Origin: Plazaster borealis
Lineage: Eukaryota; Echinodermata; Asteroidea; Forcipulatida; Labidiasteridae
Direction of reading: 5' to 3'
Assembly: GCA_021014325.1 (NCBI GenBank)
Contig: CM037470.1
Location: 7,729,147-7,793,146, forward strand
DNA length: 64,000 nucleotides
Shown: piece by piece, positions 26,423 through 64,000 of the stretch
How positions within the stretch are numbered: the first letter of the stretch is position 1
How the letters are laid out: every line of letters begins with the position of its first letter
Made by a program: the position numbers and the translations under genes
Notes under the pieces: generated by a model
Database searches by the model: none
The model's input: the letters and a program-made list of their open reading frames with translations, nothing else
What the model was told of the DNA's origin: nothing

Positions 26423-26587
26423 CTACAGCCATGTGGACCCACTGGGTTTAGTATTGGGATACTTGGGCAGAAAGTACATATTCTTACGCATACGTTTGAT
26501 GCACTCTGGGGTCTGTGAAGCAGTCTTTAACTTCCGGGTCAAAGGGTCTCGAATCTCCCCTCGTTGACCTGTCACTCTATTGGTCAC
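26423..26587 (-). CDS. Roco-caspase exon 24: end of p10 and stop
   Basis: 165 nt including the TAG at 26425-26423. VTNRVTGQRGEIRDP, then SQTPECIKRMRKNMYFLPKY; the Q-x-P ... R-K-x-x-Y-F-x-P ending is that of caspases. A 12-residue extension (PNTKPSGSTWL) follows the last strand. The acceptor is preceded by a T-rich tract ending CCACCAG. Confidence 0.9.
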   Translation of the reverse strand: MTNRVTGQRGEIRDPLTRKLKTASQTPECIKRMRKNMYFLPKYPNTKPSGSTWL

Positions 26588-29500
26588 CTGGTGGAAAAAA
26601 ACGTACGATTTTATGAAGAATCTTCCAGTCTGGCTGAATACCCTTGGAATCACACATGTGCCTTTAAGGTCAAATTTAGTTTTGTGATCACTCATTTTTC
26701 AATAGATATAGCCCTTATGAAAGTGGGTGGAAAATTTTATGTCTCTAACCTCATGCTAAACAAATGTAAAATGCCATTGTATTTGACACCTTTCCTGTGC
26801 GAAATTTGTTGAAATCCAAAATTATTTCAAATTTATGGGTCTGTACATTTTTTATAGTGAATTTTTAGTTCCTTCTTGATATTCAATCAAAATGATATTC
26901 AATCAAAACAGCAATGAATTTGACTTGTTGACAATATTCCTGTGTAGATCTGTTTAATGTTTGCATCCAATGACGTCATGTTTCAAATTTGGCTCTAAAA
27001 GATTATCAAAGAGTGACACACCATTTTAACTTGAGGTTACAGACTTGTCCACTTTCACAAGTACTCTATTTGAAAATGATTGCATCACAAAACTGAATTT
27101 GACCTTAGAGCACCTCTTTAACTTTATAAGTGCTGATAATGTAGTATTCCACTGGACTGATTAATTTCCATGAATAGCTCCATGGCCCAGCAGCTTGACT
27201 GCCATTAAAACATTGACTTATAACATTAAATATCATTCTTAGACCATGTCCTAATTCATGGGTTTGGCCGTGGCTATAGCCGGACACTGATTCTTCAAGT
27301 CTTGTGATTCGGAATAGCCAAACATTATTAATATTCAATGTGATATACCAGGTAGTCTTGCTCTTTTGATATAGAAATTGTTGGTACTTTATCCACATGA
27401 CGCCATTTGAGTAGGGGATCAGACCGCGATGTCAAGAGAATGTTGGCCTTCCTGCACTACTCCATTATTGTATCATCGTTTGACCTCCAAGATGGCAGCA
27501 CAATGACATCAACAAACAAGGCCTATTAAACATGAAAGCAGTTTTATTATCCTTACCTTATTCATAAGAGTATCTAGACTATCCTCTGATGCACATTGTA
27601 TAAACACTTCACATAATGCTTGTATAAACCAAGAACCTTCAACCTGACTGCGAAGAGACACACTACCTAAGGATCAAACACAGACGACTCTTATATATCA
27701 GCTGCAAAGACTTGTTGATGATCCAAGCATCAACAAACATTAGCCAGCACTGTGAATGTATGTTGTTTGGTGTCCTAATAAAATCCTTGCTCTAGTGTCA
27801 TCATGTGTGCGTACTTGGTACTTGATAACTTTGTGTGGGGTAACATTTAAGGTTTTATTTCATTGGTTTTTAAATCCTCTGGTTTTCATCAATTCAATCA
27901 GTCAGTCAGCTAACCTTAACCCTGCGTCCCGAGGCTCCCCCCAAAAAAACAAAAAAAAATGGCTCATCCCACCAGCCTCTTTGGAAGGCACTTTTAATTA
28001 AAGGGTAATTAAGTGTGTTTGGGGGTGGTCCCAAGATATTTCCCATGCTAGAAAGACTTTGTAGTAGCCTGATGATTGATAAATTACATTGTGTTGGCTG
28101 CAGACCTTATCTAGAAATAAAATGCAAGGTTCGTGTACAAATTTGCATAGGCGAAAATCATACGTGTTTCAATGGTATGTTTTTTTGTGTGAGTAGACAT
28201 GTCATAGGGGACTGCCGCTGGCAAACTTCAAAGGGTGTTGGTGACCTGTTAGTGAACTAAACCCCATGGATGACTATACTATCTCAAAGGGGGGGGCTTC
28301 TGATAGAGGATAACATGTAATATGGCCGGTTTTGACTGAACGGTTCTTAATTTATTGAAAAAACTAAATAAAGTGCCTTCCGCTACAAGCCACCAGCTAG
28401 ACGCAGGGTAAAGGCATCTAGTTTACTAGACGAATGTTTCAAGAAAAAGGCAAATAATAGTAATCATAAATGAATAACTATTATTAGAATGGTTTCTTTT
28501 AGTACAGCTCAGATCCTTTTTTTAGTGTAAACTGATGGGAAATCCATTGATGAAAGTTATACACTATAAAGGAGTCTGTTTGGTTTTGAAATGTGGCGTT
28601 ATAAGATTTAAAAAGTGTACACTTTCCTCATAGAACTAATGATACATACCTTCAGTTGAAGCATAAGCAAAGAACATGTCAGCATTAGCTGGTAGGTCAT
28701 TAGCAAATGAATAATCAGCATTGATGGCAATATCATCACCATCATCATCATCATCTGAGTGACATTCAGTATCAGACACACATATGTCATTGTCTGCTTC
28801 CACTAGTTTTATGCTTTGATCTGAAACATAAAACACACACACACAAAAAAAAAAAAAAAATGATAAGAGCATTATAACCTCAAAGATTGTCACTTTCTAT
28901 GGAGTGACTCCATTTACAATCACCTACAGGCTGCTAGGGTTCACACAATACATGCACTCCTATAACCATGCCTACTCTGTGGATGCATTCTGACAGGATC
29001 TCCAACATGCCCCTTACTGACAAATTGAACTCAATAGAAGGTTGACAAAGTCTCTAAATCACCAGCTACCAATTGTTGAAAAACATAAGGTGTGGATATC
29101 AAATTCCACCTTCATCTGTATATATTAATACATGTTTTCATCTGTCACAAAACTTTACTTGGGGTACACACAATGAGATCGATTGATTGGCATTCACCAT
29201 ATACCTGACTTCTTTTCCTTTTTATCTCTAGTGTATCTCTTTTCATTTACTGTCTCTCCTAGCCTCAATAGAAAACCAAAGAAAATAACATGCAAGCTCC
29301 GAGATGATGTAAATCATGCTGAGATATCGAGCAAGTATACCTCCCCTGCAGGCTTGTATGAAGAAGAGCTTAGGTTTACCAAGGAGAGCAGGGCACCGAT
29401 GACCCTCAAACATTGAGTAGATATTTCTGAGTTGGATGCTGGTTTCATCAATTCCTTTGATTACTCCAGTATTACCATGACTCATCAATACAACAACAGC

Positions 29501-32500
29501 AGAACAGTAGTCATCACAATCAAACCTGCTCCTAAATCTTCCTAGACTGTCTGAAATGTCCTATTGAAGTATTCAATAATAATCAATACATTAACTAATT
29601 ATCAACAGAAAACACTGCATCGATACCTAGGCTGTCTAATATCTCCTGTTGAAATATTCAATAATAATCAATACATTAACTAATAAATCAACAGAAAACA
29701 CTGCATTGTTACCTGAGGTTTTCTGATATCTCCCGTTGAAATATTCAATAATAATCAATACAATAACTATAATCAGTCAACAGAAAACACTGCATTGTTG
29801 CCTAGGCTGTCTGATATCTCCTATTGCAGTATTTAATATAATCAATACATTAACTATATAATCAGTCAACAGAAAACACTGCATTGCTGCCTAGGCTGAT
29901 AGCTCTGAGTTAGTTATAATATCTCTTTGTTGGAGTATTCAATGATAACTAATTAAGTGTTTACACATACTCTAATTACTAGTGGATGTCAGAACTGGTT
30001 GTTACGAGGCATCAACAGGTTTCAAATAGAGTGGAGCTGAAACATGGAGTGCCACGACTATGAGAAGGCAACAACTTGGCTGAATGTGAGGTAACCAGTG
30101 AGCTAAACAAAACATATACAGCAAGTTTGTGCATTACACAATCAAAGAAGCCGTGACTAAACATCAAAACTAGAGCTATTTAGAATTGATCTTGCAAATG
30201 ATGAATAGATGTGATGCTACATTACCTTAGCAGTTAAATTGGTGTGAACTTGTACTACATATCCTAGTTCCTGTAGTACATGACATATATTACCAAGATC
30301 AACCTCTGATCCTTTCCTGCGTCTTCCATTGAAATCACTGTTATTTAAGACATACGCCAATCCCTTAGTGTCCTTCCACATACAGTAGTTCTATTTAGAA
30401 AAAGAAAAAAAAATAGAAACAATTCCATTCTAAATCATTAAAAGGAACTTTTGCAGTGTAGCTATTCTTAAACAATATATTCTGTACAAAAGTATTAGAT
30501 TGTGACTGCTCATTGGTCGAGAACCCAACATGTAACAATTTCTTTACATTTTACAACATAAAAATAAACTTTTGGTTGCACAAGATTTGCTTTCAGGTAG
30601 GTTTAACCAATTGTCCATTGTCTTATCATCAGGTGTTTCAGTGTTGTTGTTTGAAGTGAATTGCCAAGTACATATATTATTCATATAGTTAAAAAAAAGT
30701 AGTATAGCAGGGCCACAATGGAAATCAATTTTTTAACTGGTTAGGAAATTAGGTTTACCATATGAATTGCTATTTTTTGTAAAAGAAAACCATTTGTTTC
30801 CAAATTAAGGAATTATAAGTTCACTTCTGTGGCAAGACAGTTTATGAGTTTACAGGAAAAGAAGGTACTTTTACTTAATGTTGCAAAGCAATGTTTTATT
30901 TTTATTTTGTTACCCTACACCGATGTGTGGTAGGCATCTGTACGGTATACTCGGTGTTGAGTAAACAGTGCTCCATTGGATTAAGGTAAAAAAGCAAAAT
31001 AGTATACTTTATCCAAGATGCAAGTATTTTTTATATCTATTTCAATATACAAGCCCCATAGAAAATGAAACCTGGATCATCCTGGTGGGATCCCGGCGGG
31101 ATACAGAAATCCCGGCAGGATCCCAGTTTCTTAACGGATCCCGGTTGAATTTACTGGGAATCTACATGTAGGTTGGATTTACTGGGTTCCCAAAATTACT
31201 CACAAGTTTTTCCCGGGTTCCCAGTGGGATCATAGGCGGAATCCATGTGGGATCCGGTATTTTCTATAGGGTGTACATGTATTGCAAATAATCTTGAACC
31301 ACTTAGATTCCTGCCTATTTACAGTTAAATGTATAACAAAGATTTCTATTGTACAATGTTCATAATACCCAATGGTTCAGTTCTCGATCTTATTTATTTA
31401 TCTACTGGCCCTAATCCCTTCCACCTTGGCTAACGATAAAGATTGTATTTTGAAAACATTCAATCCCCACATCTGGGTCATTAAATATTATTGCCAAGCA
31501 GATCGACTAACAGCACAATGTCATTCAAGTTCTGGTTGGTTCAAATCCTGTTGGCTAAAATCCAACTCATGGTACACACCTGTGTCTGCTCCAGCAAAAA
31601 CCCATCAAACTCTTGTTGCCTATTAAGAGTACCTATGCACTGTAATGGCTAATGAGAGGAAAGATTGCTACAGTGATTGATCGTCTGCAAACTAACCATG
31701 GAGTTGAGATCATTTCAAGAAGTTGTCATAGCATATTGAACATGGGTAGCCGGTAATAATGAAGGCTTCTTATTATTACTTTCTCAAACTTTGTAAGCCT
31801 TTCTTGTATGAAACACACTTTGTTTGTGCAGCGCATGAGTCAACTGAAGATGACTGACTTACATTGTGTGGATCGAGCAGTGATTGTGATGGCTTAGCAG
31901 CAAGTATGCTATAATCCTTATAAGATCCTTGTGCATCAGGAATAACCTCCTTCAATGTCTCAACACCTAAAGTAGCAATAAACCAATACAAATAATAAAT
32001 CAGTTGGCAGTGTCAGAACTTATCATCACAACTACTCAGCATGTTATTAGTACTGATTTACAAAACGTTCCAAGTAACATACTATTGTTGATAAAATACA
32101 CAAAAGTATCCAGATTATCACATAACAATTTCAACTGAACGTCTTTTCTGCCACTGTCGAAACTCACTTTGGAAAATGTACATGAAGTGGTTTTCAACAA
32201 TGTACAAACAACACAATAAATAGAAATTGATTACATATTCCTTAACCACCAAAAAACAAACCCACATTTGAACAAAACTGTTATAATTTTAAAAGCAGGA
32301 TTAAAGCTACTGTAGTTTGAAAGATTGTACATGAAGTCTGTCAGACAAGAGAATTTTCTTCAAAAGGGACTGAGAAGGGTAAAGAAAAAGTAAATAAATA
32401 AGTAAATATCAAACAAAAACCAGGGCATATTGACTTGGGAGGGGACTTTTATTGAGCTCCATCACTTAAATTGGAACACTAAGGTACATACTAAAACAAA

Positions 32501-35500
32501 CTTTGCTATTGCTTTATTCTGTTCATATGTCTGGAAATAAAAAATAAATCCTGAAAAGTGAACTCAATCACTATGAATACATGAAGCTCTAATGACAAAA
32601 GATCATTCCATTAACCAAGAGTTTTATTGCTACAAACCAGATATGACAATTTTAAGCATTGTAGGGTTTTACACATCATTCTAGCTGTGCCTAAATTTGA
32701 ATCAGTGCTTAAAAACATTACCTTTTGTAGTATTCTGTTGTCCTTCCAAGGCCACACTGAAGTCATGATACAACTGTTTATCATGTGACTTAATGACTTT
32801 ATACAACATCCTATCCACTGCTTTAGTCCTTCCTAATGTCCGCTGAGTGGCTTCAATCTCCTCCCTATCACTGATATCAAACAGTGATGGGGACGAAGCT
32901 AGTAAGGATTCTGGGTTTATGACTTCACGTAAGGCACCAGCCTCGTATCTCAAATCCTCTCTCCATACTAAAACCTTTATGCTGATCTTATCAGGTTTGT
33001 ACTTTTCCTCTATAAGAGAAACAAAAGTCTCATTTCACTTCATGGCCAACTTTTTGTTCAATAAAATACCCTCAAATGCCAGTTATTTATGACAAAGCAA
33101 CCACATGGCAAAGGATCACACCATAAACAGTGCTCATCTGCAGCTAATTGTAATATTTACTACTTATAAAATGCATGGCCATTTATAGCTGGTATAAGCC
33201 CACTCCTAGATCTATGAGGTTTGTTCCGCTATTGTCTAAGTGGAAGAAACCCCATAGTTCTAGGAGAAGTAAGCCTATAAGGTGCACTTTATACACTTAC
33301 TGTGTGCTTGTTTGTACAGGTTTTGACAGCGATTGTGGGTTGGTATCGCAGTATTAGGCTGAGGGAATTATTGTAATTATAAGGACATTGGAAATGAGTT
33401 AGATACTCAAAAGGAATATGGCTGATTGCGAATGGGGTTTACCTAGTGCACAGTGTGATGATTTCGTAGACAAGAGGCAACATTTGTATACACACATTTT
33501 AGGTTTGTAGGTCTGAATGAACTGAGATTTACTATGATGTAATTATTTCATGTGCACACAACAATACTCACCAACACTGAAGCTGGCATCACTACTGGGC
33601 ACCTGTGAGAAGAAGAAAATAATTTCCAACTTATTATATAATTCTTGTAAATGGAATTCAAATAAGGTTACTACTTCAAGTTTTTAACATAATTATGTTA
33701 CCCATTAGCCTTTGCAGTGCCTTTCCTGACAATACCTTTTGCATCTGAAGTTAACACTACATTGATGGCCATGTAGAGATATGCTCATTTTGATCAACAT
33801 ACAGTACAGTATTTTGTTTTGTTGTTGTGCTATGTATGTATAACTGACTGAAACACATATTAAACTCTATAATGATGACAGTAGCTTTTTTCAAATTGGT
33901 ATTAAGGTAAACTTTCACTCATTTATTTATATCAGAAATGCTGCAAGCAAGTATTTAAACATCTCCATAATATATATTTTTACCTGATGTCCTAATCGTT
34001 GCAACATTTTATCAATGACATTAACTGCCTCTTTGCAGCCCACCAGACCAGGATGTTTACATATAGCTCTCAGATGACCTACACTAGGCTGAACTCGTTC
34101 TAGTAGCGCCCTCGTTGGTGACGTATCTCTGCGTACACAGATATGATACATATAATCCATTTCAGACTCAGTTACATTAAGGGCCTCTGCCAGACCTCTA
34201 TAGTCCTGCCCTAGAGGATGAATAATATCCAAACATCGACAGAGAGCTACCAGATCTTCTTCTAGCAGCCAAGCACTACTACACTCCAACCCATCACGTC
34301 TCAGGAAGGTGCTATTATAACCCACACACAGTACATCAGTTACTAGTTCAGTATTCCTAGTCTTAGGATGGACAACAACACGATGCTTAGCAGACTGAAT
34401 GTCTGCCTCAGTGTAGTAGGAAATATTTTCTAAGTCATTATGCTGTAGCAATGATCGAGGGCTAAGGTAACTGATATTGATAGCAGTTCCTGGTGAGCGT
34501 TGCTCAATTTCACTCAATACCATACCTAACACATACTCCAGTTGTGTATAACATGCACTGCGATCTACCTTTCCTGATCTACCACGTACACAGACATGAA
34601 TAGCTCTCTGATAGCTTGTCAGTTGAACTAGCCCCTCGATATCTCGAGAAAACTTGAGGGAGTGCCTAGAGATGCAAACTCCACTTTGTGCATCACAGAA
34701 ACACCTCATGATGCGCACTTGTAGACATGGAAACACATCAGGGGAAAATATATCAGTGTCATCTTTACATTCAATCCTACGCCCATAATACTCAGTGAAA
34801 CGTGTGTCTTTACTCCATACTACAGGGTCTAAATCCATTGGTAACCGAGCTGGTATTACAAAATGAGTGTCATCATAGCGAAACACCAGCTCCAGATGTT
34901 GCAGTAGATCCATAAGAATATCTACATCAGCTAAATCTTGCAGTAACTCCCTTATATTTGATACTGAATACAACTGCTTGTTGTCAAGGCGACTAATGTT
35001 ACTAGGGAAGTCATCACCTGCAAACAATCGACCAATAATGTCATAGCTCAACCAACGTGGCTCTAATACAACCCAGTCCATTTCACCAGATTGCTTCTTG
35101 TAGTAGATCTGAAATCAAAATACAAATATTTTAAGAGTTTGGATTCTTTGTTTTGTTGAAACCATGTGGATAAGATTTGAAGAATCAATTGCACTGGATT
35201 TAAGGGTAAAATAAAGGTAGTAGAACGATAAAGGTGCACACACTTCTAAAGGAGAGCCATTGGACAATGATTACATTCTCTTCAATCCTCAATAAGGACA
35301 TTTCTTGTGCAAGTGTCATTCACATGGGATAATAATCTGAAGCAATCTGTCAAGTTCATGTCTGATTTCTGAAAGATGAGGATATTCAGGCAGAAATAAT
35401 TCCTGCATCTCATTTGTCACTTCACTTGATGCAAGTTGGACTGATAAATGTTTTTCCTAAAATTTTAAAATTCCTAAATAGTGGTCTGAAAGATTCTCTT

Positions 35501-38500: not shown

Positions 38501-41500
38501 TTTGAACTAACTTGTCATACTTTTGCTTCTGTAACATCAAAATCACAATATTCATATATAAGAATTTTTGATAGAAGTTGGCATAAATAATTTGGTGCAA
38601 TGTATTCTTTTCTTTAGTGGCACAAAATGTTGAAGACCCAGCTGGCCTCCTTGTCTAAGCAACTATTCTAAATCAAAGTCTTGGGTAAAGATCTGCGCCA
38701 AATTGTAAAAAACGTCTACGGTTTTTTTTAATTCTTGTTTTTTCAGAAGTTTTAAATTGTCAGATAGGCTTAGAATGTTAACATTTATTGAGTAATTCTT
38801 GCTGCGTGGTCAAGCTGTAAACCAGCTGTGGCCTAAGCTGAACGATTCAATGTAAACTGAAGTAGAAAGCGATTCAAACCTTCTCTGCTTGTGTAATGAT
38901 CTTGGCAGCTTTACCTGACCTACGAGGCAGCAGACCACTCGGTGTCTTACCCTCCTAGTTTGTAATGACAAAAAGGGGTCATTAATAATCAAACACTGAT
39001 TAATATGTCAAAGAGACTGTGCTTAAAATAGTGAAAATAACACACAACAATTAATAACCAAATCAATAACTGGGTAAGTTTTATTACTTTTAAGAAATAA
39101 TATATTGAATATGGTCAAACAGATAGTTCAGCCATTGCCAATTGTAACTACTACAATCAAAATAAAAAGAGCATTATCAACAATGCTTTCTTTTCTAGAA
39201 ACCAAACAAAGATGTATGATTTGATTAAGCTTTTTGAAATGTGACAATGTAATAGTAAGGTTATATTGCTACTTAACTTTGCACGTTTATTTTGAATGGG
39301 TATCAGAACTTTTTAACATGAACCACAGGCCACATTTACTTCAAAGGAGGGGGAAACTTTTGCATTATCTTATAATGTCCATATTGTTTGGTGTGATGTC
39401 TGATTTTAGTCTTCATTGTTGTACTGTTACTTTGTATTTTTCTAATAGGTTTAGAATTAAAAACAACTTTTTAAGCAGTTGAAGTTGTAAATTCTTAAAT
39501 TGTAAACTGTTTAAATGGTTTCATGTAGTTTGTAATGTTCATACCAATAATTATTTGTAATGTACTTTTAACTTCAGCATGATAAATTATTGAATTGAAT
39601 GTTGATACAAGTGTTACTTATTTGTACTCAATTACAGTTGAGCATACACCTTACACAACTTAACTACCACACTGGTGACTCTATAGGCCCATACAGGAGT
39701 CACAATTTCAGATGTTTTAATTTCATCTTAGAGCTTTGTAAATTTATCAAGTCCAAGCCTCTATCACTGGAAAGATGGGATTAATCTTATGACACAAACT
39801 ATCAGTGGTGCGGATGGAGTAAGATTAATGAATTAAAGAGGCTGTCGGTATAAATGTCTAGAGTTTCATAGTGGTACATGACTTACATTATTAATGAGCA
39901 GAGCATCAGAACCAGATGTGATGAGTAAATGACATATGTCTGCATTACCAAGACTTGCTGCTACATGTAACGCACAGTTACCATTCTAAAACCAAAACAA
40001 TATTTTAAAGTAGGTCAAGTTTCTTGAGTAAACACAATACTGTATTTATCAAACAATAAGTAATTTTTTAATAAAAGAAAGGGTATGTTTCCTGGGAATA
40101 TAATTTGGTGTAACCTTGGACCTTCAGATGTGTCTGAAATATAAATTTGGATTATTAAGGGTACTTTGGATAACCTTATCAGCATGGTGGGTGTAATGAG
40201 GGGACAAAGACCAAGACACAGGCCCCAATGGAAGCAATGGTCTCTCTGCCTTCTAGACATTCTAAAACTCATCAGGGAAGAGGTCTGTTGCTCATCACTA
40301 TCATTCAACATGCATTATGATGAATTCATTATGAATCTCCTCCTCATTACCTCTTCATACAATATTATTTTAATAGATGTGAAATTTACATCGGGATAAA
40401 GAAAAATGTTTGGTTCTATCCATACACCGATGTGCGTTATGTACTGTACACTCAGAACTTTCCCCGAATCTTGTGAAAAAAATGCACTAAGCACTTAAGC
40501 ACTCTGACCTTTGAAATGCAAGAGTAGATGTCTTACCACTAGACCACCAAGATTGCCCAATAGTTAGAGGCCGTTCAGATCCTATATTTTAGCAATAAGG
40601 CTGTTATCAATGAGTAAATAACAACTTACTTTGAAATTAAACTCAAATGTTATTGGAAGTTAAACAATTATGAAGTCAGCAGTAGGTTTGTTCCCCTATA
40701 AGTGTCGGCAAATTAATTTACAGAAACTTCTAGTGGTTAGTTTCTTGCCCTGTGTTTTTATTTATAAAAGGTTAGAACTGTTAATTCTGCAATGAAATAC
40801 CTGCCCACCTGTTCAAATGAAAACTACACACACACTTATCCAAATTCCTAAGTATTGCAAACTGCAATTAAATAGGAATCTGCTACCTGAAGCACTGTTT
40901 TCTTACTAAAGTATTGATGCCTATGATGTATGTAAAGGTAATTGTAGTTTAACTGTGCTCAAAAAAGCTTCCTGCACTTACTTTATTTCTTGATGTGATA
41001 TCAGCTCCATTCTGTAGAATGATTTTACAGGTTACCAGTTTGCCACTAGTTGCTGCTGCATGTAACACTGTATCACCAAGCTGCTCGAAGACAAGAAAAT
41101 TATTAATATGTGGCTCAATATAGTCAAACATATATCAATATCCAATCCAATAATGTATTGCTTCATCAAACACCCTCATGGCAAAAATAGTTGTTTTTCG
41201 GGGTAAACAAATTACAAATTGATAGGTAATTTTCTTCCAGGGTTTCATATTAAATACAAGATTTGCCGGTTTCATGTTTACAAAATGAACGAGAAATGTC
41301 TGTCTTTACCGCTCCTGAAGAATGATTTTAGAATATACTTCATTGCGGAGAAATTTATGTACGTCTCAAACAGCAACATCATTAAATTCTTAAGTAAATG
41401 GGGCGCTCTCTCGGCACTGTGCACGACTAATGTCTTTTAATTAATTTGTAACATAATTTGTATTACTATTGTTATTTTCTTCTTTCTAATGTTAATCAAG

Positions 41501-44500
41501 TGATCAATAAATGAGAATCCCCGGGATTGAAAATAAAATTAAAATAAATGAATGACTAAGAACTACATACTACATAGTATAAAACCATGTTCGTGGTAAC
41601 AGCCAATTGTTGGATCAGGATGCTACCTGCTAAACATGCAAAGCTTATACCAAAGTGGCCTTACAATGTAACACTCAGCCTTATAAAAAATACGTTTATT
41701 TAGAGGGCCATGTGACGGCCTCAAGGTGCTTCAGAGATAAAAACAGAAGCAAATAAGTAAAAAGTAAAAAGTAAGCAAAAGTACAGAATACAAGAAACAA
41801 TTAGTCAGTAAAAAATATAAGTAAGACTCAAAGCCTCAAAATACAAGTACTGGAAACAAAATGTGGAAAACTCATCCAGAGACAATAAGCTACAAAATAC
41901 AACTGTTAAAAGGAATCTATATGTGAGGGTAGAGGTTACTAGCACATACACCCTTGGCCAAAAGATCCTCAGCATCTGGCTATAGATCGTTACCATGCAA
42001 TTCAATAAGCTAGTTTCCTTGAACAAACTATTACCAACCTGATTCTTAGTAAGAATATCTGCACCTCGGTCAAGTAGTAGTTGACACATTTGATGATGTC
42101 CTTGTATACAGGCTATGTGTAGTGCAGTATTACCATCCTGTGAATTGAAACCATAGCACTCTCAGTCTACCAGACTATTGGTTCAATGTTAACGGTAGCA
42201 ATTAGACTATTCATCAACTGAAATGCTCTCAAGTGTGAGTAGAGGAAACATGAAAGGGGGAACAAGTATTACATGCATAAAACATTTTAATATAAACACA
42301 TGGACCATAATTAAAAACAATTCTGTCATAAGGTAGCTATAATAACAATTTGAAACCTTTCAAATATTTCACAAAGGTATTGAATTTAAAGCTATGCAGT
42401 TTGTGGGCGGGTGGGGGGGGGGAATGTTGGCATTTATTATGTTTACAAACTCCATCCCCCTCTTCTCCCATCCAGATCTTAGTTTTTGCTGCCTTTCTAA
42501 CAATGACTACACTTACCTTATTACGTGCATTGACATTGGATCCCTTATCAAGTAATATGCGACATGTGTTGATTTTACCACTGAAAACTGCAGAGTGCAG
42601 TGGCGTATTGCATAACTTTAAAGAAATCAAATGTATTAATAGATTCAGTACAAACTTGGAAAACACAAGTATTCAGCCACAGTACATCAATTAAGAAATT
42701 ATTAATTTAAATATTAGTTAAATGGTATGTGAAAATCAAATATTTGATATACAATTTTATTGTTTTCCCCCACAAATGTTCAATGAAAAGTCAAGTTGTG
42801 ATTTAAAGAACTTCTAAGGTTTTCCAACTAATATACAAAATAATTCCCTTCTAAGGAATGTGGTTCTAGAGAAAGGGATTCAAAAAATGTCAATTGTGTA
42901 TTCCAATTACGGATTATTCTTCCTCCAGTTCTTTGGCAATATCTCAGAATCGCTACCACCTTTTGAAAAGAAATTTTCACAGGTTAGTTTTATTGTATAT
43001 ATCTACATTTACGTAGAATTGAAACAATCAAATGGTTCCAAAAACCAAAGGTATACTTTGCCTTTAATGGGTAGAATTGTTGATGTTGTAGTTACCTGAT
43101 CCAATGCAAATGGACTAGCTCCTGCATTAATGAGTGTCTTACAAGTATCTACATGGCCAGCAGCTGATGCCTCATGTAAAGCACTATGACCATTCTATAA
43201 AAGACAAATCAGTCATCAAATACATTTCACTGCATGAAGACCAGAACGTTTCAACAAACATAATTAATTTTGTTCTTTCCAAGTAAAGCACTATGACCAT
43301 GCTAAAAAAAGACAAATCGTTCATCAAATACATTTCACTGCATGAAGACCAGAACCTTTCAACAAACATAAATTGGTCTCTCCAACAAAACATCCATCAT
43401 CAATCTTTATCTACTGGTTGATTTATGTCACTCAAAAGAGTGTATCCAGCGGATTTTGTAATAGTGTATCAAGTAGTTACCTTTTTTAATGTACCACTGA
43501 CTATGAATAACTTTTTAAAAAACGTAACAAAAAAACCTCTTTGCCATCAAATTAAAACAGTTTTTCAGAAAGAAAACAAGGTTAGGATATTTATTTATTT
43601 ATTTATGTATTTCGTATTATTTAACCAGGGTAGCCCCATCAGTTTTAAATCAACTATTCTCCCTTGGGCCCCTGCATGGATAATAGCCAAGTAAATATTT
43701 GTTTTAAAATCTTTTGCCTGAGTACTTTGATGGTGGTTTGAAAAGAACAAAGGATAGAAGGTCTCGCACCTCTCTGGTGAAAATCCAACCAACACCTTCC
43801 ACAAGCAAGAGGCCAGCTTCATTCATGTAATGAGTAACTTCTAGGGAAGTTAGGTGGATGTAGCATTACCACGTAAACCAACCCTTCTTACATTTGTAAA
43901 TAAAGGACAATTATCCAGAATGCCTTTTGCCACCAAGCCTAATCTATTTAGATGATAAGTAAAATTTGAAACTTTGAATGGTGAAGAAACAATCAAGTGA
44001 AGTTTGCGGAGACACGTAATAAATCTCTTACAAGCTGTGGTGGTTCTAAAAGATCTATTAAATGGTGTCTCCGCATACCTCACTTGATTATTTAGTCGAT
44101 AGAAGTTTTGCTTTGAGCAATTGGGATTTGGTAAATCATGAGCCAGCTTTTATAACTCTTTTTGCGTGGCCTATGATCATATGAATGAATGGAACTATCA
44201 ATCATACATATAGTAATAGCAGTCTCAATCCTGCACAGGTAGTGAAACAGACTGAAGTATAAGGACAAACTATAAACATCTCCATACTGTACCTGGTTTT
44301 TAGCTGTGACATTAGCTCCTGCTGATATCAATGCATGACAAACACCCTTGCTTCCCCAAGAAGCTGCAGTTAACAAAGCGGTATCACCAAACTAAATCAA
44401 GATAAATGAAAATAAAAATCATTTTAAAACCCTTAAATATCACATCGTAAGAGGCATGTCAATCTTCTGATTTTAACTGCTTCTATTTTATCGCCATGAC

Positions 44501-47500
44501 AGGATATTTTATTAGTACGCAGTCATGACTGTGACTATATATTAAATTGATAATTTTGTGCCAGTTAATACAAAATCCAAGTGTAAACATTATGTGGCAC
44601 CATTTGCAATTTAATTGTCCACCTTTCACAAACCCCCAGTAATCCAACTAAATCCTAATTGTGATGAATCGACTGACAAATTATTGCGGTAAATTCAACT
44701 GATAAATTTCACCAATGATTCTTTTCTGAATTATCATAAAACTTATTTATGAAGTGAATAATCCGCCCCACAGCAGCCACAATTCTATGTTTTGAGTTTG
44801 AGATAGAGACCAGGAATGGGTGGATGATTGGTCAATACATAACGGCTTTCCAACAGTCTGATCGAGCCAATAAAATTTGTAAATGTCTGTAAGAAAATGT
44901 CTTTATATGGATGTACAAACTGAGTTTCATTAAACAAACAATTTAATAATGGCTAGAAATTTCTTTGACTTTTGACTGTAAATAATCCAGCACTGTAATG
45001 GAAAAAGGACTTAATCCCGAAGCGAACTGGTTTACATTTTGTAATCAGGACTCATTCAATCATATTTATAATCCTTGTACCAACAAATGATAATGAACTC
45101 AACATTAACATTAAAAAAATTGTATCTTCAAGTAATTAACCACAACGAAAACTGACTATGGGTAAATTTGTTTAATAATCTTGGGTTGAACAAAGAAAAA
45201 ATTACTACAGTGGGACTTGAACCTGCGGCTTATTATGTGCGAGGTTCAATTCCTTCTCTAGTCAAGTTTTCTTTGTTCAGCCCAAAATTAATGACATAAT
45301 GTACTTGATCTGTCTGCTCCAGCAATGCAGATGCTTGTAACATGGCTTTACAGATGTACACATGACCACTCTTAGCAGCATAGTGTAAAGGACTCCTCCC
45401 ACTCTAAATATACAGCAGAAACATACACAACATTCCTAGTTATAAGAACTGACATTGTTCAGAAACAATAAAGAGTCAATTAATCAGAGCTTATATGGCA
45501 ATTAATATGATTATGAATGCTTGTTATATATTACTTTAATGATGTCATACTTTAAAAAAATTAAATAGATCTTATAATATTATGGGAAGATTACTAAAAG
45601 TATTAAATAAACTGATGCGTGTTAAACACTGTTACTCTCTACCGGTACTTTCCTGGTTCCTGTGAAAATAATCCACAGGCATATTACTCGGGTGGGATCC
45701 GAACCTACGAGCGACCTTTCCAATTCTAGAGCAGATGTCTTACCACTGGACCACTGAGATTACCCAGTTAGATGCAGTTTGGGTATAACCAAATAATATT
45801 CTTTATCCTTGATGCAAATTAAACATCTATTAAAACGTATTACAATATGTATATGGATTAAGACATGGTATCAAACACAATTCACCTCCAGTGTACGGAG
45901 TCTTCTCTTTAAGACTGTGTAATAAAGCTAGTATCCTTCATTGCATAAATTCTAAACATTACCTTTGTACACTGTTCATTAACCACTGTCAATCAGTTTG
46001 GTGATACACATATACTTCAGTTGCAGTACTTTTTCCATTAACTGAGACAGCGCATAAAAAGTAAGCATGGGACAATAAAACTCTTGTTTGATATAATTAT
46101 GTTTCCAGCTTTTAGTTTGTACAAAACAACCAAACGTCCATCAACCATGTAGGATGTATCTTCTTTTCTGAAGCCAAAATCACAAAAACTACAAATTGAG
46201 AATATTTCTTTTTATCGTCAAAAGATAAATATTAATATTACCAATCTAGTGAACATAACTAAAGATGGGTTTGTTTCCAATTGGCCTAAAGTGCAAATAA
46301 TTTATTGAGATTTTTGAACCTTCAAAACTTGATGAACTTTCCAAGTCCATACCAGAATCATGTTAATTATGATTTGTGACAGAACATAAAGTTCATGTAT
46401 ACTACAATTCCATCAGAAAACAATATTATGAAAACAAACTCTTAGAAAGATCAACATTATACTGCAAGAAGAATGAGGGCCAGTTTGTTTGTAATGCCAT
46501 TTGTTATGGATGTACTTATATTTGTCTATTGATTCTTAGCAACATAAATAATAATACTATTAAACGTAAAGTCAAAGATTTATTTGTGTCACAGTCAGTA
46601 ATGTCAACATAATGCTGATTTATAGGCCAAATTGCAAGAGTATAAGTCATCTGTGCAAATTTCAGCTGAATACAATGTCTACTTGCTGAGAACCCAGAAA
46701 AAAAATGCATTTTTTCATCAAGAACCTCAAACCCTCAAACCCATCCACTTTGGTAGGCCTACCAACTGCATCTCCGGCTGCAGCATTCACAAAAATGGAC
46801 ACCAACAAAATTTGAATCCCCAAAACTCGCCTTGAGTTTTGGAGATTCAAATTTGTAGACATACTTTTATTGATTTCTAATCAATGGGGGCATTTCAGAA
46901 GAAATGATTTTGAGGGTTTGGGTTGCCACCATTTCCATCTTTATAACAAGAAAGCTCTTGGAAAGAAATTACACAATATTTGGGGGGTCATTACCAAAGT
47001 ATGACCCTACCTTTAATAATAATCAATACCTCACATACCTTATCAACAGCATTAACCCCTGCACCTGCCTGTATCAATATATCACAGATAACATCATAGC
47101 CACTTCCAGCAGCATAGTGTAATGGGGTCCTGGCAAACTGAATACACAATACAAAAGTATAACTATAATAAAAGAAAGGCAAAATTTTAATTATTTTGAA
47201 TATCCTTTCCTTTTTCTTCTACTATAACTTACATGCAAAGGACAGTAAAAATGTTGTCGTAAAGAGCATTCTTCTCCTGGGATATGCACATCTGGCCTGG
47301 CTGACACAAAATTGTGATGCTCTTGACAATGACAATATAAACAAATCTCAAGTTCACCAGACTTGGTTAAACACATTGTATGACATTCGTTTATGATCTC
47401 ACATATTTATTTCTCTATGAAGGGGTCTTGTGAACTATGGTTTTAGGTTATTATCACAGGTATCACTGGAGTTCGAGTTAATTGTTTGACAATGTTAAAA

Positions 47501-47624
47501 TACGTACCAATAATTGTATATCTCTAGCATTGACATTGGCTCCTTGCTGTATACAACGTTGGAGTTTATTTGAATCTCCACTCATAGCTGCTGATAACAA
47601 CATCTCTGTAGCAGCACTCCCCAT
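26423..47624 (-). CDS. Ankyrin-ROC-COR-death-CARD-caspase fusion protein (24 coding exons)
   Basis: Predicted protein of about 1389 residues. Coding exons in transcript order: 47624-47508, 47137-47039, 45403-45305, 44391-44293, 43194-43096, 42615-42517, 42137-42039, 41080-40982, 39985-39887, 38954-38880, 38528-38412, 38117-37881, 37361-37250, 37005-36845, 36075-35896, 35108-33984, 33602-33572, 33009-32722, 31966-31863, 30390-30226, 29560-29341, 28820-28650, 27666-27557, 26587-26423. All borders are AG/GT and all phases agree. Domains: ankyrin repeats (about 8-328), ROC GTPase (about 340-540; P-loop 352-360, DCAGQ 410-414, THLD 473-476), COR (about 600-860), death domain (about 878-972), CARD (about 998-1075), caspase p20 (about 1080-1242; H1196, C1239) and p10 (about 1284-1389). 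The front half is DAPK1-like but lacks the kinase. The back half is an initiator-type CARD caspase. The protein is expected to be cytosolic. The alternative is two adjacent genes split near 33.6-34.0 kb; phase continuity and lack of intergenic space argue against that. Confidence 0.82.
26588..27556 (-). other. Intron of the Roco-caspase gene
   Basis: About 970 bases; the plus-strand open frames here are chance. Nothing else seen. Confidence 0.6.
27557..27666 (-). CDS. Roco-caspase exon 23: p10 core
   Basis: 110 nt, phase 1 to 0. SVSLRSQVEGSWFIQALCEV, then SEDSLDTLMNK. GSWFIQALCEV is the canonical p10 motif. S-L-R replaces the usual S-[WY]-R of the substrate pocket; the arginine (R1304) is kept. 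Confidence 0.95.
27914..28414. mobile_element. MITE in a p10 intron (about 501 bp)
   Basis: Left CCTTAACCCTGCGTC, right GACGCAGGGTAAAGG, inverted with one mismatch. No ORF. Confidence 0.75.
28650..28820 (-). CDS. Roco-caspase exon 22: p20/p10 linker and start of p10
   Basis: 171 nt, phase 1 to 1. QSIKLVEADNDICVSD, then a five-aspartate run (D1264-D1268) encoded by a GAT repeat, then LPANADMFFAYASTEG, the first p10 strand. VEAD1251 and INAD1277 are candidate self-cleavage sites for separating large and small subunits. Confidence 0.93.
29341..29560 (-). CDS. Roco-caspase exon 21: caspase catalytic exon (SHG and QACRG)
   Basis: 220 nt, phase 0 to 1. CSAVVVLMSHGNTGVIKG carries the catalytic histidine (H1196). 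GKPKLFFIQACRG carries the catalytic cysteine (C1239). Both active-site motifs are intact, so a working protease is expected. The acceptor and first 19-20 bases are copied several times upstream in the intron (29541-29895). Confidence 0.96.
29541..29895. repeat. Tandem repeat (about 87 bp, four copies) that duplicates a splice acceptor
   Basis: Units share CAATAATAATCAATAC and CAACAGAAAACACTGCAT. The first unit overlaps the start of the caspase catalytic exon. The other copies carry a decayed acceptor and exon start upstream of it in the transcript. Confidence 0.9.
30226..30390 (-). CDS. Roco-caspase exon 20: start of caspase p20
   Basis: 165 nt, phase 0 to 0. YCMWKDTKGLAYVLNNSDF, RRRKGSEVDLGNI, LQELGYVVQVHTNLT. 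The first substrate-pocket arginine is R1138 in the R-x-G-S-E-x-D motif, and the LGYxVxxxxNLT strand is as in active caspases. Confidence 0.94.
30391..31862 (-). other. Intron of the Roco-caspase gene
   Basis: About 1.5 kb with the GGATCC-rich element at 31055-31271; otherwise nothing recognisable. Confidence 0.55.
31055..31271. mobile_element. Short inverted-repeat element rich in GGGATCCCGG
   Basis: Left CCCATAGAAAATGAAACC, right end in reverse complement CCCTATAGAAAATACC. The interior has five or more GGGATCC/GGATCCC-type words in 170 bases. Confidence 0.6.
31863..31966 (-). CDS. Roco-caspase exon 19: CARD-to-p20 linker
   Basis: 104 nt, phase 1 to 0. GVETLKEVIPDAQGSYKDYS, then SLLDPHN. 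It leads into the first p20 strand. D1089 and D1096 are possible prodomain-release sites. Confidence 0.82.
32722..33009 (-). CDS. Roco-caspase exon 18: CARD
   Basis: 288 nt, phase 1 to 1. EEKYKPDKISIKVLVWREDL, then ALREVINPESLL, LFDISDREEIEAT, AVDRMLYKVIKSHDKQLYHD and FSVALEG. The sequence fits the six-helix CARD pattern: L-x-x-V-x-P-x-x-L, D-x-x-x-I, then R-x-x-L-x-x-V/I with a final F-x-x-AL-E. A death-effector or other death-fold domain is less likely. Confidence 0.8.
33572..33602 (-). CDS. Roco-caspase exon 17: 31-nt linker microexon
   Basis: 31 nt between TTCTCACAG and GTGAGT, encoding VPSSDASFSV plus one base. It changes the phase from 0 to 1, exactly as the next exon requires. It is the link between the Roco half and the caspase half, so it is the exon to confirm by RNA evidence. 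Confidence 0.68.
33984..35108 (-). CDS. Roco-caspase exon 16: COR domain and death domain
   Basis: 1125 nt, 375 codons, phase 0 to 0, by far the largest exon. It begins IYYKKQSGEMDWVVLEPRWL, the COR signature, where DAPK1-type proteins have LDPRWL. COR continues with LLQHLELVFRYDD and PARLPMDLDPVVW. The C-terminal 95 residues form a death domain: LLEEDLVALCRCLD, QDYRGLAEALNVTESEMDYM, then TRALLERVQPSVGHLRAICK. If the donor at 33983 were not used, translation would stop 18 codons later, which would give a DAPK-like protein without protease. That is a possible alternative isoform. Confidence 0.93.
35109..35895 (-). other. Intron of the Roco-caspase gene
   Basis: About 790 bases; no exon accepted (see rejected item near 35790). 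Confidence 0.5.
35896..36075 (-). CDS. Roco-caspase exon 15: ROC-COR junction
   Basis: 180 nt, phase 0 to 0. GSRVMPRLCEEIRRLKHTW, YPVISWKQFCCKVKT, DDSLHRTAAVFLTAMSE. The P-x-x-W-x-x-F pattern is typical of the start of COR. Confidence 0.85.
36076..36844 (-). other. Intron of the Roco-caspase gene
   Basis: AT-rich intron with an AATAAT run near 36340; nothing else seen. Confidence 0.55.
36845..37005 (-). CDS. Roco-caspase exon 14: ROC C-terminal part
   Basis: 161 nt, phase 1 to 0. KVQAASMLKQIQAEFSNHL, INSIKYGSKAMVRLRGTLES. Matches the end of a ROC domain with the variable strand and last helix. Confidence 0.85.
37250..37361 (-). CDS. Roco-caspase exon 13: ROC G4 motif
   Basis: 112 nt, phase 0 to 1. 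LRRWLAFVKAGHDY, then DVVLVATHLDQL; THLD is the guanine-specificity (G4) motif in the THxD form seen in Roco proteins. Confidence 0.9.
37881..38117 (-). CDS. Roco-caspase exon 12: ROC switch regions
   Basis: 237 nt, phase 0 to 0. It holds the candidate switch I threonine in KATPGIELSK, the G3 motif FWDCAGQLEYHVTHAMFLG, and the strand CIYALVYDVT. The DxAGQLEYHxTH string is characteristic of ROC domains rather than of small Ras-type GTPases. Confidence 0.93.
38412..38528 (-). CDS. Roco-caspase exon 11: ROC P-loop
   Basis: 117 nt, phase 0 to 0. It encodes VKLFLIGDPKAGKTTLQKAL, a textbook Walker A/P-loop (GxxxxGKT) preceded by a hydrophobic beta strand, as in the ROC GTPase domain of DAPK1 and other Roco proteins. 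The P-loop is residues 352-360 of the assembled protein. Confidence 0.93.
38880..38954 (-). CDS. Roco-caspase exon 10: terminal half repeat / linker
   Basis: 75 nt, 25 codons, phase 0 to 0. EGKTPSGLLPRRSGKAAKII then TQAEK. It has the TPxxL start of an ankyrin capping helix and runs into the ROC domain. Donor GTTTGA is non-consensus. Confidence 0.75.
39001..39886 (-). other. Intron of the Roco-caspase gene
   Basis: About 890 bases with no recognisable feature on either strand. Confidence 0.55.
39887..39985 (-). CDS. Roco-caspase exon 9: ankyrin repeat
   Basis: 99 nt, phase 0 to 0. NGNCALHVAASLGNADICH, then LITSGSDALLINN. Last full ankyrin repeat before the ROC domain. Confidence 0.92.
40480..40560 (-). 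repeat. tRNA-derived repeat fragment
   Basis: On minus: GGTGGTCTAGTGGTAAGACA followed by TCTACTCTTGCATTTCAAAG. Same family as 10858-11860, truncated after the anticodon region. Confidence 0.7.
40982..41080 (-). CDS. Roco-caspase exon 8: ankyrin repeat
   Basis: 99 nt, phase 0 to 0. LGDTVLHAAATSGKLVTCK, then ILQNGADITSRNK. Donor is GTAAGT. Confidence 0.93.
42039..42137 (-). CDS. Roco-caspase exon 7: ankyrin repeat
   Basis: 99 nt, phase 0 to 0. DGNTALHIACIQGHHQMCQ, then LLDRGADILTKNQ. Donor GTTGGT is weak. Confidence 0.92.
42517..42615 (-). CDS. Roco-caspase exon 6: ankyrin repeat
   Basis: 99 nt, phase 0 to 0. LCNTPLHSAVFSGKINTCR, then LLDKGSNVNARNK. Donor is a consensus GTAAGT. Confidence 0.93.
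42803..43067. mobile_element. TTAA-type MITE, second copy (about 265 bp)
   Basis: The right end in reverse complement, TTAAAGGCAAAGTATACCTT, matches the element at 20437-20847. The left end TTAAAGAACTTCTAAGG is decayed. It stops about 29 bases from an ankyrin exon. Confidence 0.55.
43096..43194 (-). CDS. Roco-caspase exon 5: ankyrin repeat
   Basis: 99 nt, phase 0 to 0. NGHSALHEASAAGHVDTCK, then LINAGASPFALDQ. Its acceptor and first bases are duplicated upstream near 43301. Confidence 0.92.
43177..43370. repeat. Tandem duplication including the start of ankyrin exon 5
   Basis: Two copies, offset about 107 bp, of AAGCACTATGACCAT through CATTTCACTGCATGAAGACC and CAACAAACATAA. The first copy contains the real acceptor at 43195-43196. 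Confidence 0.9.
44293..44391 (-). CDS. Roco-caspase exon 4: ankyrin repeat
   Basis: 99 nt, phase 0 to 0. FGDTALLTAASWGSKGVCH, then LISAGANVTAKNQ. The usual histidine of TPLH is replaced by leucine. Confidence 0.9.
44392..45304 (-). other. Intron of the Roco-caspase gene with foldback fragment
   Basis: AT-rich; contains the tRNA-like foldback at 45180-45295. Nothing else seen. Confidence 0.55.
45180..45295. repeat. Small foldback of the tRNA-like family
   Basis: Left TTGGGTTGAACAAAGAAAAA, right TTTTCTTTGTTCAGCCCAAA, with GGGACTTGAACC and GAGGTTCAATTCC between. A contracted version of 161-421. Confidence 0.75.
45305..45403 (-). CDS. Roco-caspase exon 3: ankyrin repeat
   Basis: 99 nt, phase 0 to 0. 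SGRSPLHYAAKSGHVYICK is followed by a degenerate second half ending LLEQTDQ. Donor GTACAT is weak. Confidence 0.85.
45640..45775 (-). repeat. tRNA-derived SINE-like repeat, uninterrupted copy
   Basis: On minus: GTGGTCCAGTGGTAAGACAT, then GTAGGTTCGGATCCCACC and a tail GTGGATTATTTTCACAGGAA. It shows the pre-insertion form of the repeat at 10858. Confidence 0.75.
46805..46857. repeat. Imperfect inverted repeat (hairpin)
   Basis: CAAAATTTGAATCCCCAAAA CTC, short loop, GAGTTTTGGAGATTCAAATT TG. Flanking CTCAAACCCTCAAACCC and GAGGGTTTGGG suggest a larger inverted-repeat element (about 46720-46925). Confidence 0.7.
47039..47137 (-). CDS. Roco-caspase exon 2: ankyrin repeat
   Basis: Exactly 99 nt, phase 0 to 0. 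Motif RTPLHYAAGSG, then LIQAGAGVNAVDK. A complete 33-residue ankyrin repeat in one exon. Confidence 0.92.
47508..47624 (-). CDS. Roco-caspase exon 1: start codon and first ankyrin repeat
   Basis: 117 nt, 39 codons. The ATG is at 47624-47622 (MGSAATEMLLSAAMSG), 37 nt after an untranslated acceptor at 47661. It encodes an ankyrin-like repeat ending QQGANVNARDIQLL, donor GTACGT, phase 0. No kinase exon precedes it. Confidence 0.82.
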
Positions 47625-54560: not shown

Positions 54561-54878
54561 TTACAATATTCTGTTGTTTCGTCTTTTAAAGAACATCATG
54601 CTTGTTACCTTTCGCTTTAAAAACTCAACCAGATCATTCCTTCCAATCCTCTCCAGCTTAGATGATAAAGTGTTGAAAGCCTTCTCTCCAAATGGTCCAA
54701 ATCCCTGCTGCCATTTCACTAACATGCAGAATATCTGGTTACGGACACTATCTGCATTTTCACTTTTCAATTTGGTTACGTCGCTATTGCTAATGCCTAA
54801 ATGTGTGGCTAAACTTTCCCAATTTGTTACTAGTTTTTCATCTATTTCTCGAAAACACACCTCAGTTTCAATTCCGGT
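54561..54878 (-). CDS. Death-domain terminal exon
   Basis: 318 nt with stop. Acceptor is TTCGTTTGTTTGCAG. Pattern: CFREIDEKLVTNWESLATHL, GISNSDVTKLKSENAD, MLVKWQQGFG, FNTLSSKLERIGRNDLVEFL. The W-x-x-LA-x-x-LG-I and the final L-x-x-I-G-R-x-D-L-V motifs are those of death domains. A polyadenylation hexamer (AATAAA on minus) sits at 54548-54553. Confidence 0.85.
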   Translation of the reverse strand, partial: TGIETEVCFREIDEKLVTNWESLATHLGISNSDVTKLKSENADSVRNQIFCMLVKWQQGFGPFGEKAFNTLSSKLERIGRNDLVEFLKRKVTSMMFFKRRNNRIL

Positions 54879-63236: not shown

Positions 63237-63650
63237 ACACATTTCACTTCAGAGCAGCCCCACGCTGCGTACACATCTACGTCGGACGCACGGGTTCACT
63301 CGGAGCCATCCTGTCCGACACACACCCACGCACCAGACAGTTGTTTTCTCTTTGAGCAGCCCCATCGCACCAACTCAGGCGAGCCGGGTGCACGGATTCA
63401 CTCGAAGCCGTCCCAGAGTTGGAGGGAGGTTCGCGACCACTCGGAACGTCCTCCAACCATTCCATCATCCATTAGCAGCTGTGCTGTCAGGCAGACCTCA
63501 ATACTACTTCCAAATGGTTTGAGCACACACTACAGTCTGTTACAGAACATGTCAACATGAAATTACTCTGAGACCAACCTATACAAGCAGACCACACAAC
63601 ATCCTGGGGGTGGGGGAGAAGGGGTAACCCATCAAAAGATTGAGGGAGCA
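63237..63650 (+). mobile_element. Interior of the LTR retroelement, right part
   Basis: Continues the tandem unit interrupted at 60066 (CAGCCCCACGCTGCGTACAC at 63257). A more divergent unit starts near 63354 (GAGCAGCCCCATCGCACC). No coding motif. Confidence 0.5.
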
Positions 63651-63654
63651 AAAA

Positions 63655-63987: not shown

Positions 63988-64000
63988 TGAAGGTGTCAGG

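What the first reader, a model, noticed from the sequence alone, without database searches (positions are those of the whole stretch)
26423..47624. A single gene appears to fuse a DAPK-like Roco protein to a CARD caspase
Seen: 24 exons on the minus strand join in phase to give ankyrin repeats, ROC, COR, death domain, CARD, and full p20/p10 caspase with SHG and QACRG. Known: DAPK1 has kinase-ankyrin-ROC-COR-death; initiator caspases have CARD or DED prodomains. Inference: the two halves were joined so that a GTP-switch scaffold directly carries the protease. I know of no described protein with this order.
Basis: partly seen in the sequence, partly recalled or inferred. Interest (0 to 1): 0.95.

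Follow-up and report, generated by a model that had tools for sequence, protein, structure and literature searches.

The report
Sea-star Roco GTPase fused to caspase
A single sea-star gene appears to join a cell-death GTPase scaffold directly to a caspase, a protease of cell death, so that one protein could both receive a signal and make the cut; relatives predicted in two other sea stars show the same layout, one of them cut short.

Summary
The 24 minus-strand exons reassemble exactly as described into ANK-ROC-COR-Death-CARD-caspase with GTPase and caspase active-site motifs intact. Patiria miniata has a predicted 1389-aa protein, 72% identical; Asterias rubens an isoform with the same order up to early p20. 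Both are named after DAPK. The genome (560.6 Mb) fits Plazaster borealis. I correct the origin story: the CARD seems to belong to the Roco half, since brittle-star relatives carry ROC-COR-CARD and no caspase, and the caspase groups with echinoderm caspases, apart from the CARD caspases sampled. The gene has no kinase, and a separate COR-Death locus lies elsewhere, so it is a DAPK relative, not DAPK1. The A. rubens isoform fits skipping of exon 21, which holds both catalytic residues. Likely mechanism, inferred: ROC-COR and CARD/Death assembly bring tethered caspases together. Sensor-caspase hybrids (amphioxus) and bacterial ROC-COR-caspase proteins are in print; I found no paper on this animal order in the rows listed. 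No transcript was seen.

The parts
47508..47624 (-). exon 1: ATG and first ankyrin repeat (aa 1-39); in-frame TAA two codons upstream of the ATG
39887..47137 (-). exons 2-9 (47137-47039, 45403-45305, 44391-44293, 43194-43096, 42615-42517, 42137-42039, 41080-40982, 39985-39887): eight 99-nt phase-0 exons of the ankyrin array
38880..38954 (-). exon 10: end of ankyrin region (aa 304-328)
36845..38528 (-). exons 11-14 (38528-38412, 38117-37881, 37361-37250, 37005-36845): ROC GTPase domain with GDPKAGKTT (aa 352), TPGI (390), DCAGQ (410), THLD (473)
35896..36075 (-). exon 15: start of COR (COR-A), aa 538-597
33984..35108 (-). exon 16: rest of COR and Death domain (aa 598-972)
33572..33602 (-). exon 17: 31-nt linker exon (18% identical to Patiria), moves the phase from 0 to 1
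32722..33009 (-). exon 18: CARD (aa 983-1078)
31863..31966 (-). exon 19: linker to caspase with candidate cleavage site after Asp1089 (Asn in Asterias rubens)
30226..30390 (-). exon 20: first part of p20 (aa 1114-1168)
29341..29560 (-). exon 21: p20 with catalytic His1196 (SHG) and Cys1239 (QACRG); missing from Asterias rubens isoform X2
28650..28820 (-). exon 22: intersubunit linker with VEAD (Asp1251, candidate cleavage site) and start of p10
27557..27666 (-). exon 23: p10, with the SLR arginine aligned to that of caspase-3
26423..26587 (-). exon 24: end of p10 and TAG stop
29541..29898 (-). 87-bp tandem array (4.1 copies) over intron 20 and the exon-21 acceptor; three earlier copies resemble the real junction, two with AG kept

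Best explanation
A sea-star gene encodes a one-chain, GTPase-linked caspase: ankyrin repeats (partner binding), ROC-COR (dimerisation and GTP module), Death domain and CARD (further assembly), then a complete caspase. Shown here: gene structure, domain order, intact ROC and caspase motifs, the same order in Patiria and, as far as its record runs, in A. rubens, and a separate COR-Death locus in the genome. Inferred: the protein is idle as a monomer; binding through ankyrin, Death or CARD parts and the ROC-COR cycle bring two tethered caspase domains together, which dimerise, cut the intersubunit linker (VEAD1251) and act either tethered or, where Asp1089 is present, after release. Skipping exon 21 gives a scaffold without catalytic residues, a plausible brake. 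Origin, inferred: an asterozoan ANK-ROC-COR-Death-CARD scaffold gained a member of an echinoderm caspase family at its C-terminus.
For: Model and phases; domains; folds of CARD and COR (54, 59, 65); motifs; relatives, with p20 82% and p10 83% identical to Patiria, the best-kept regions, above ROC 77% and COR 75%, which argues the protease is maintained; brittle-star scaffold without caspase; caspase clade; exon-21 skip; no Met in frame after residue 972 before Met1050. From papers, passages only: COR and ROC in Roco dimerisation and GTP cycling, DAPK1 dimerising through ROC (PMC6337361); receptor-caspase hybrids with cDNA and artificially dimerised caspases (PMC2575513).
Against: No read or cDNA was seen; the Patiria and A. 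rubens proteins are database predictions. The one A. rubens sequence seen lacks the catalytic exon (its cluster holds 8 members, the others unseen). Asp1089 is Asn in A. rubens, so release there is not general. CARD and COR score below Pfam's cut-offs. No full-length match from Acanthaster planci appeared although its proteins are in the database. The tree tool warned of long branches meeting, among them a member of the echinoderm clade, P0012. Brittle stars may have lost the caspase. GTP control is untested, and published DAPK1 data do not show ROC simply switching its kinase on.
Confidence: 0.6

Rival explanations
1. Two neighbouring genes (a Roco gene and a caspase gene) are merged by the model; the protein does not exist as one chain.
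For: Only predictions, no reads. An AATAAA starts at 33927, 57 nt past the exon-16 end, and readthrough there stops after 18 codons; AATAAA occurs 82 times on this strand of the window, so this is weak. Brittle-star relatives make the scaffold without caspase.
Against: Same order in predicted proteins of two other sea stars, one of them of another order than the likely source. Exons 17, 18, 19 have no upstream in-frame ATG before a stop; the 31-nt exon 17 is needed for phase. The A. rubens isoform itself runs from the ankyrins into p20.
Confidence: 0.06
2. Real single chain, but the caspase stays tethered and serves a local, non-death cutting role, with ROC acting only as scaffold.
For: Asn in place of Asp1089 in A. 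rubens would keep the caspase attached; DAPK1 passages show no simple ROC-on, kinase-on link (PMC6337361, PMC4104024).
Against: Candidate linker site VEAD in the window, Patiria and brittle-star P0003; ROC motifs intact in 5 of 5 proteins examined. Neither excludes a tethered role.
Confidence: 0.22
3. The main product is the exon-21-skipped, catalytically dead scaffold; the full-length protease is rare.
For: The one A. rubens sequence seen is of this form; in the window three copies resembling the exon-21 acceptor precede the real one and two keep AG.
Against: p20 and p10 are the best-kept regions against Patiria; the Patiria record is full length.
Confidence: 0.12

Closest known systems
Predicted proteins P0001 (Patiria miniata, 'death-associated protein kinase dapk-1-like') and P0002 (Asterias rubens, 'death-associated protein kinase 1-like isoform X2')
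   Same: Same order; of residues 600-1389, 72% identity over 100% and 94% over 72%
   Different: P0002 stops at 1173 aa without exon-21 residues; no kinase domain in either
Amphiura filiformis P0005 (1471 aa) and P0004 (792 aa)
   Same: ROC-COR-CARD, P0005 with ankyrins and a weak Death match; 36% over ROC-COR-Death of Patiria
   Different: End after the CARD, no caspase
DAPK1
   Same: ankyrin-ROC-COR-Death part (PMC6337361 passage for ROC-COR and Death; ankyrins recalled)
   Different: Has a kinase before ROC-COR; here no kinase, and CARD and caspase follow; a separate DAPK1-like locus lies on C5
Amphioxus hybrids: TNFR-caspase, LRRs-caspase, death-caspase (PMC2575513, passages)
   Same: Receptor or assembly domains and caspase in one chain; cDNA stated for TNFR-caspase and death-caspase
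   Different: No ROC-COR in the passages read
Bacterial LRR-AP-GTPase (ROC)-COR proteins with C-terminal effectors, caspase among them (PMC8195603, passage)
   Same: ROC-COR followed by a caspase-type effector
   Different: Bacterial, LRR not ankyrin; 'caspase' there is used for the wider superfamily
Amphiura P0003: DBB-ANK-ZU5-caspase
   Same: Same echinoderm caspase clade on another platform
   Different: No ROC-COR, Death or CARD match

Membership tests
Roco proteins | ROC-COR tandem | tested here: met
   Roc 1.3e-10 (above cut-off); COR-A 1.7e-5 (below cut-off), fold match to Roco proteins 11 of 11 at E<=0.001 from a weak model
Roco proteins | GTP-binding motifs | tested here: met
   G1, TPGI, DxAGQ and THxD in 5 of 5 proteins; binding not tested
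DAPK1 | N-terminal kinase | tested here: not met
   in-frame TAA two codons before the ATG; kinase-motif scan of the window gave 4 DFG-like strings, each in a frame with stops close by or in an intron; no kinase in Pfam
DAPK1 | ankyrin-ROC-COR-Death order | tested here: met
DAPK1 | orthology by descent | tested here: inconclusive
   another locus on C5 has a COR-B (sub-cut-off)/Death exon 27% identical and ankyrin-like exons; its presumed ROC exon matched no Roc model and no kinase exon was found by motif; no tree with DAPK1 of other animals
Caspases (C14) | caspase domain with His/Cys dyad, p20 and p10 | tested here: met
   PF00656 1.5e-50 over profile 1-233 of 233; SHG, QACRG, aligned arginines
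Caspases (C14) | Asp-directed activity | not testable with these tools
   needs expression
CARD initiator caspases (caspase-2/9 type) | CARD next to caspase | tested here: met
   exon 18 then 19
CARD initiator caspases (caspase-2/9 type) | caspase domain groups with them | tested here: not met
   echinoderm-only clade of 21 of 44 rows, 100/99; amphioxus CARD caspases were in the tree, Mytilus P0038 was dropped, starfish caspase-3/9 was absent
Sensor-caspase 'shortcut' hybrids | upstream modules and caspase in one chain | tested here: met
   transcript not shown

The most novel reading that the evidence does not exclude
A self-contained, GTP-gated caspase: a Roco GTPase does within one chain what Apaf-1 or NLR ATPases do in multi-protein assemblies, with splicing of the one exon that holds both catalytic residues as its on/off switch; an animal counterpart, arisen independently, of bacterial ROC-COR-caspase conflict proteins.
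Probability: 0.35. Interest if true: 0.8.

Novelty: new variant of a known kind. Interest (0 to 1): 0.66.

Why it matters
If the chain is made and works, caspase activation would be put under a Roco GTPase without an adaptor, giving a simple protein in which to ask how ROC-COR nucleotide state controls an attached enzyme, a question still open for DAPK1 and LRRK2. It also works as a 'Rosetta stone': it predicts that the brittle-star scaffold without a caspase works with that caspase family. And both database relatives are named after a kinase for which no domain was found in them.

Tried and rejected
Chance or artefact: rejected by the end-to-end relative. N-terminal kinase missed upstream: rejected (relatives start at the same Met). 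CARD brought in by the caspase: rejected, with the caveat that the CARD link is weak (25% over 60 columns) and that the same profile method did not link amphioxus caspase CARDs to either set. Alternative last exon for A. rubens X2 inside intron 20: looked for, not found; the tail fits exon 20 to exon 22. Kinase exons at the C5 locus: motif scans over 80 kb found none; left open. Its presumed ROC exon matched no Roc model at E<=0.1. DAPK1 of other animals by protein search: one search scored only the 7989 candidates sharing most words and returned 4, so it neither supports nor excludes kinship. Rfam: nothing at the gathering score. Exon-16 model too weak to place the Death domain by fold.

Rows dropped: the tree used 45 chosen rows of 126 (125 proteins and the window model); P0038 was dropped for lack of the QAC pattern, leaving 44. 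One search gave 198 of 3649 candidates, 120 listed. PDxxGxY: 12 of the 22 printed rows that have the QAC pattern (25 rows printed), 10 lack it. VEAD shortly after the active Cys: 4 of those 22 (window, P0001, P0003, and P0016, labelled as an insect, Diamesa tonsa).

Literature: nine searches on the topic; a tenth was for the genome. They are of an open-access library; I saw the listed rows (at most 20 a search; held 154, 45 and 73 papers), and no listed title or abstract described an animal ROC-COR-caspase protein. The 2006 sea-urchin apoptosis survey is recalled and was not looked for by title. Passages were seen of PMC8195603, PMC3196919, PMC6337361, PMC5785508, PMC11378527, PMC4104024, PMC2575513 and PMC6321704; of PMC9270726 abstract and outline; no supplementary file was read.

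Full report
WHAT IS THERE. The finding describes 24 minus-strand exons from 47624 to 26423. Rebuilt from the raw sequence, they give one frame of 4170 nt and 1389 residues plus stop, with 23 of 23 introns GT-AG. An in-frame TAA lies two codons before the ATG. Pfam finds ankyrin repeats, Roc, COR-A, Death, CARD_2 and a caspase domain over its whole profile, in that order. COR-A and CARD_2 score below their curated cut-offs, so I tested them by fold. The CARD exon gives a good model (pLDDT 84) whose best PDB matches are CARDs, led by RIG-I (TM 0.72-0.75 for the first six; best E 0.015, none at 0.001). The exon-16 model is weak (pLDDT 56), yet 11 of 11 PDB matches at E<=0.001 are Roco proteins, with low TM. 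The ROC G-motifs are present, as are SHG (His1196), QACRG (Cys1239) and the arginines that align with those of caspase-3 (their role in the S1 pocket is recalled).

WHOSE GENE IT IS. The window is C16:7729147-7793146 of a 560.6-Mb genome. Plazaster borealis has a 561-Mb assembly in 22 chromosomal scaffolds (PMC9270726, abstract), and the protein is 94% identical to Asterias rubens over the part aligned. Plazaster, a forcipulatid sea star, is therefore the likely source, not proven.

IT IS NOT AN ISOLATED MODEL. A search with residues 600-1389 returned 3 of 7065 candidates: P0001 of Patiria miniata (1389 aa, 72%, whole region), P0002 of A. rubens (1173 aa, 94% over 72%; it ends early in p20), and P0003 of the brittle star Amphiura filiformis (43% over 38%; the caspase is its only shared Pfam domain besides a weak ankyrin match). 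Patiria is a valvatid, so the order is kept across two sea-star orders. Against Patiria the identities are p20 81.7%, p10 83.2%, ROC 76.9%, COR 74.9%, Death 71.6%, linker before p20 67.4%, ankyrins 66.5%, CARD 66.3%, intersubunit linker 46.2%, exon-17 linker 18.2%. The protease is the best-kept part. Nothing from Acanthaster planci appeared at full length, though its proteins are in the database (P0009); I cannot explain this. Both relatives are predictions; no transcript was seen.

WHERE THE JOIN IS. Three results place it after the CARD. First, brittle-star P0005 (ANK-ROC-COR-CARD, with a Death match of only E 0.035) and P0004 (ROC-COR-CARD, no Death match) have no caspase and align with the sea-star scaffold at 36% over ROC-COR-Death. 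Second, profile comparison links the sea-star and brittle-star CARDs (69%, E 4e-5) and Death regions (98.5%), while the 8 other comparisons gave under 1%. Those 8 include amphioxus caspase CARDs, which are CARDs too, so the method misses distant kin. Third, in a 44-row tree the Roco-caspases sit in an echinoderm-only clade of 21 rows (100/99), apart from amphioxus CARD caspases and the caspase-3/7 and caspase-8/10 types sampled. The tool warned of long branches meeting, P0012 of this clade among them; the known starfish CARD caspase-3/9 (PMC5785508, passages) was not in the tree. Members of the clade sit on several platforms: alone (P0006), DBB-ANK-ZU5 (P0003), and longer proteins with hydrophobic segments seen by eye (P0007-P0009). 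Whether sea stars gained the caspase or brittle stars lost it is open.

NOT DAPK1. A genome search with ROC-COR-Death gave 7 matches from 10 candidates: 6 exons of this gene and one exon on C5, 27% identical. That exon holds a COR-B match (1.9e-4, below cut-off) and a Death domain (8e-11), and its frame ends 35 residues after the Death match; ankyrin-like exons lie upstream. I take it for the DAPK1 of this genome, partly by recall of DAPK1's C-terminus. Against this, its presumed ROC exon matched no Roc model and no kinase exon was found by motif in 80 kb. The gene in hand has no second copy in that search, no kinase, and is a DAPK relative at most.

A SPLICING SWITCH. The A. rubens isoform X2 ends ...LTAKIKAFN. 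Exon 20 spliced to exon 22 in the window gives ...LTAKIKA-stop, 1171 aa. X2 therefore fits the exon-21-skipped form, and exon 21 holds both catalytic residues. In the window an 87-bp tandem array (29541-29898) runs over the exon-21 acceptor; three earlier copies match the real junction at 35, 34 and 31 of 44 bases, two with AG kept, and their use would end the protein at 1184 or 1183 aa. Whether the array affects splicing is unknown.

MECHANISM. For Roco proteins, COR and ROC mediate dimerisation coupled to the GTP cycle (PMC6337361, passages). Caspases fire when brought together (established knowledge; PMC2575513 cites caspases activated by induced dimerisation). In this chain the two are joined, with Death and CARD as further assembly domains. 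I infer: signal at ankyrins, Death or CARD; ROC-COR pairing; caspase dimerisation; cut at VEAD1251. VEAD follows the active Cys in 4 of 22 caspases examined: window, Patiria, P0003 and the insect-labelled P0016. The linker motif PDxxGxY (Asp1089) is in 12 of those 22, but A. rubens has Asn there, so release is not general and tethered action is possible. DAPK1 work does not show ROC simply switching an attached enzyme on.

AGAINST WHAT IS KNOWN. Receptor-caspase and death-caspase hybrids with cDNA exist in amphioxus (PMC2575513); Roco proteins with CARD and Death domains in Trichoplax (PMC4104024); bacterial ROC-COR proteins with caspase-type effectors (PMC8195603). Nine searches on the topic listed no paper on an animal ROC-COR-caspase protein, in a library that lacks most subscription papers and with only the top rows seen. 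I therefore call it a new variant of a known kind, with transcript proof as the missing piece.

Noticed in passing
54564-54908, minus strand: A further Death-domain exon upstream of the gene (Pfam E 7e-12), closest in the PDB to the Death domains of PIDD and CRADD (E about 1e-5); its gene was not resolved.
   Followed up: partly
29541-29898: 87-bp tandem array copying the exon-21 3' splice site into intron 20 as possible decoy acceptors.
   Followed up: partly
541-945, plus strand: Fibronectin type III match (E 7e-12) of another gene.
   Followed up: no
1280-2774: 47-bp (141-bp) tandem array that leaves three plus-strand frames open for over 500 codons; probably no gene.
   Followed up: no
17904-17990, plus strand: ARAGORN tRNA-Leu (caa), without an Rfam match at the gathering score.
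   Followed up: no
about 63650-64000, minus strand, running past the window: Open frame with a YLDDWLL stretch like retrotransposon reverse transcriptase, by eye; no Pfam match for the in-window part.
   Followed up: no
P0003 (Amphiura filiformis): A second platform-caspase fusion: DBB-ANK(weak)-ZU5-caspase.
   Followed up: partly
G000 contig C22, 26.84-26.96 Mb: Six caspase exon matches close together, four without stops inside, of 31 caspase matches in the genome.
   Followed up: no
about 35320-35450, minus strand: Open stretch behind an AG between exons 15 and 16, absent from the relatives' proteins; seen by eye.
   Followed up: no
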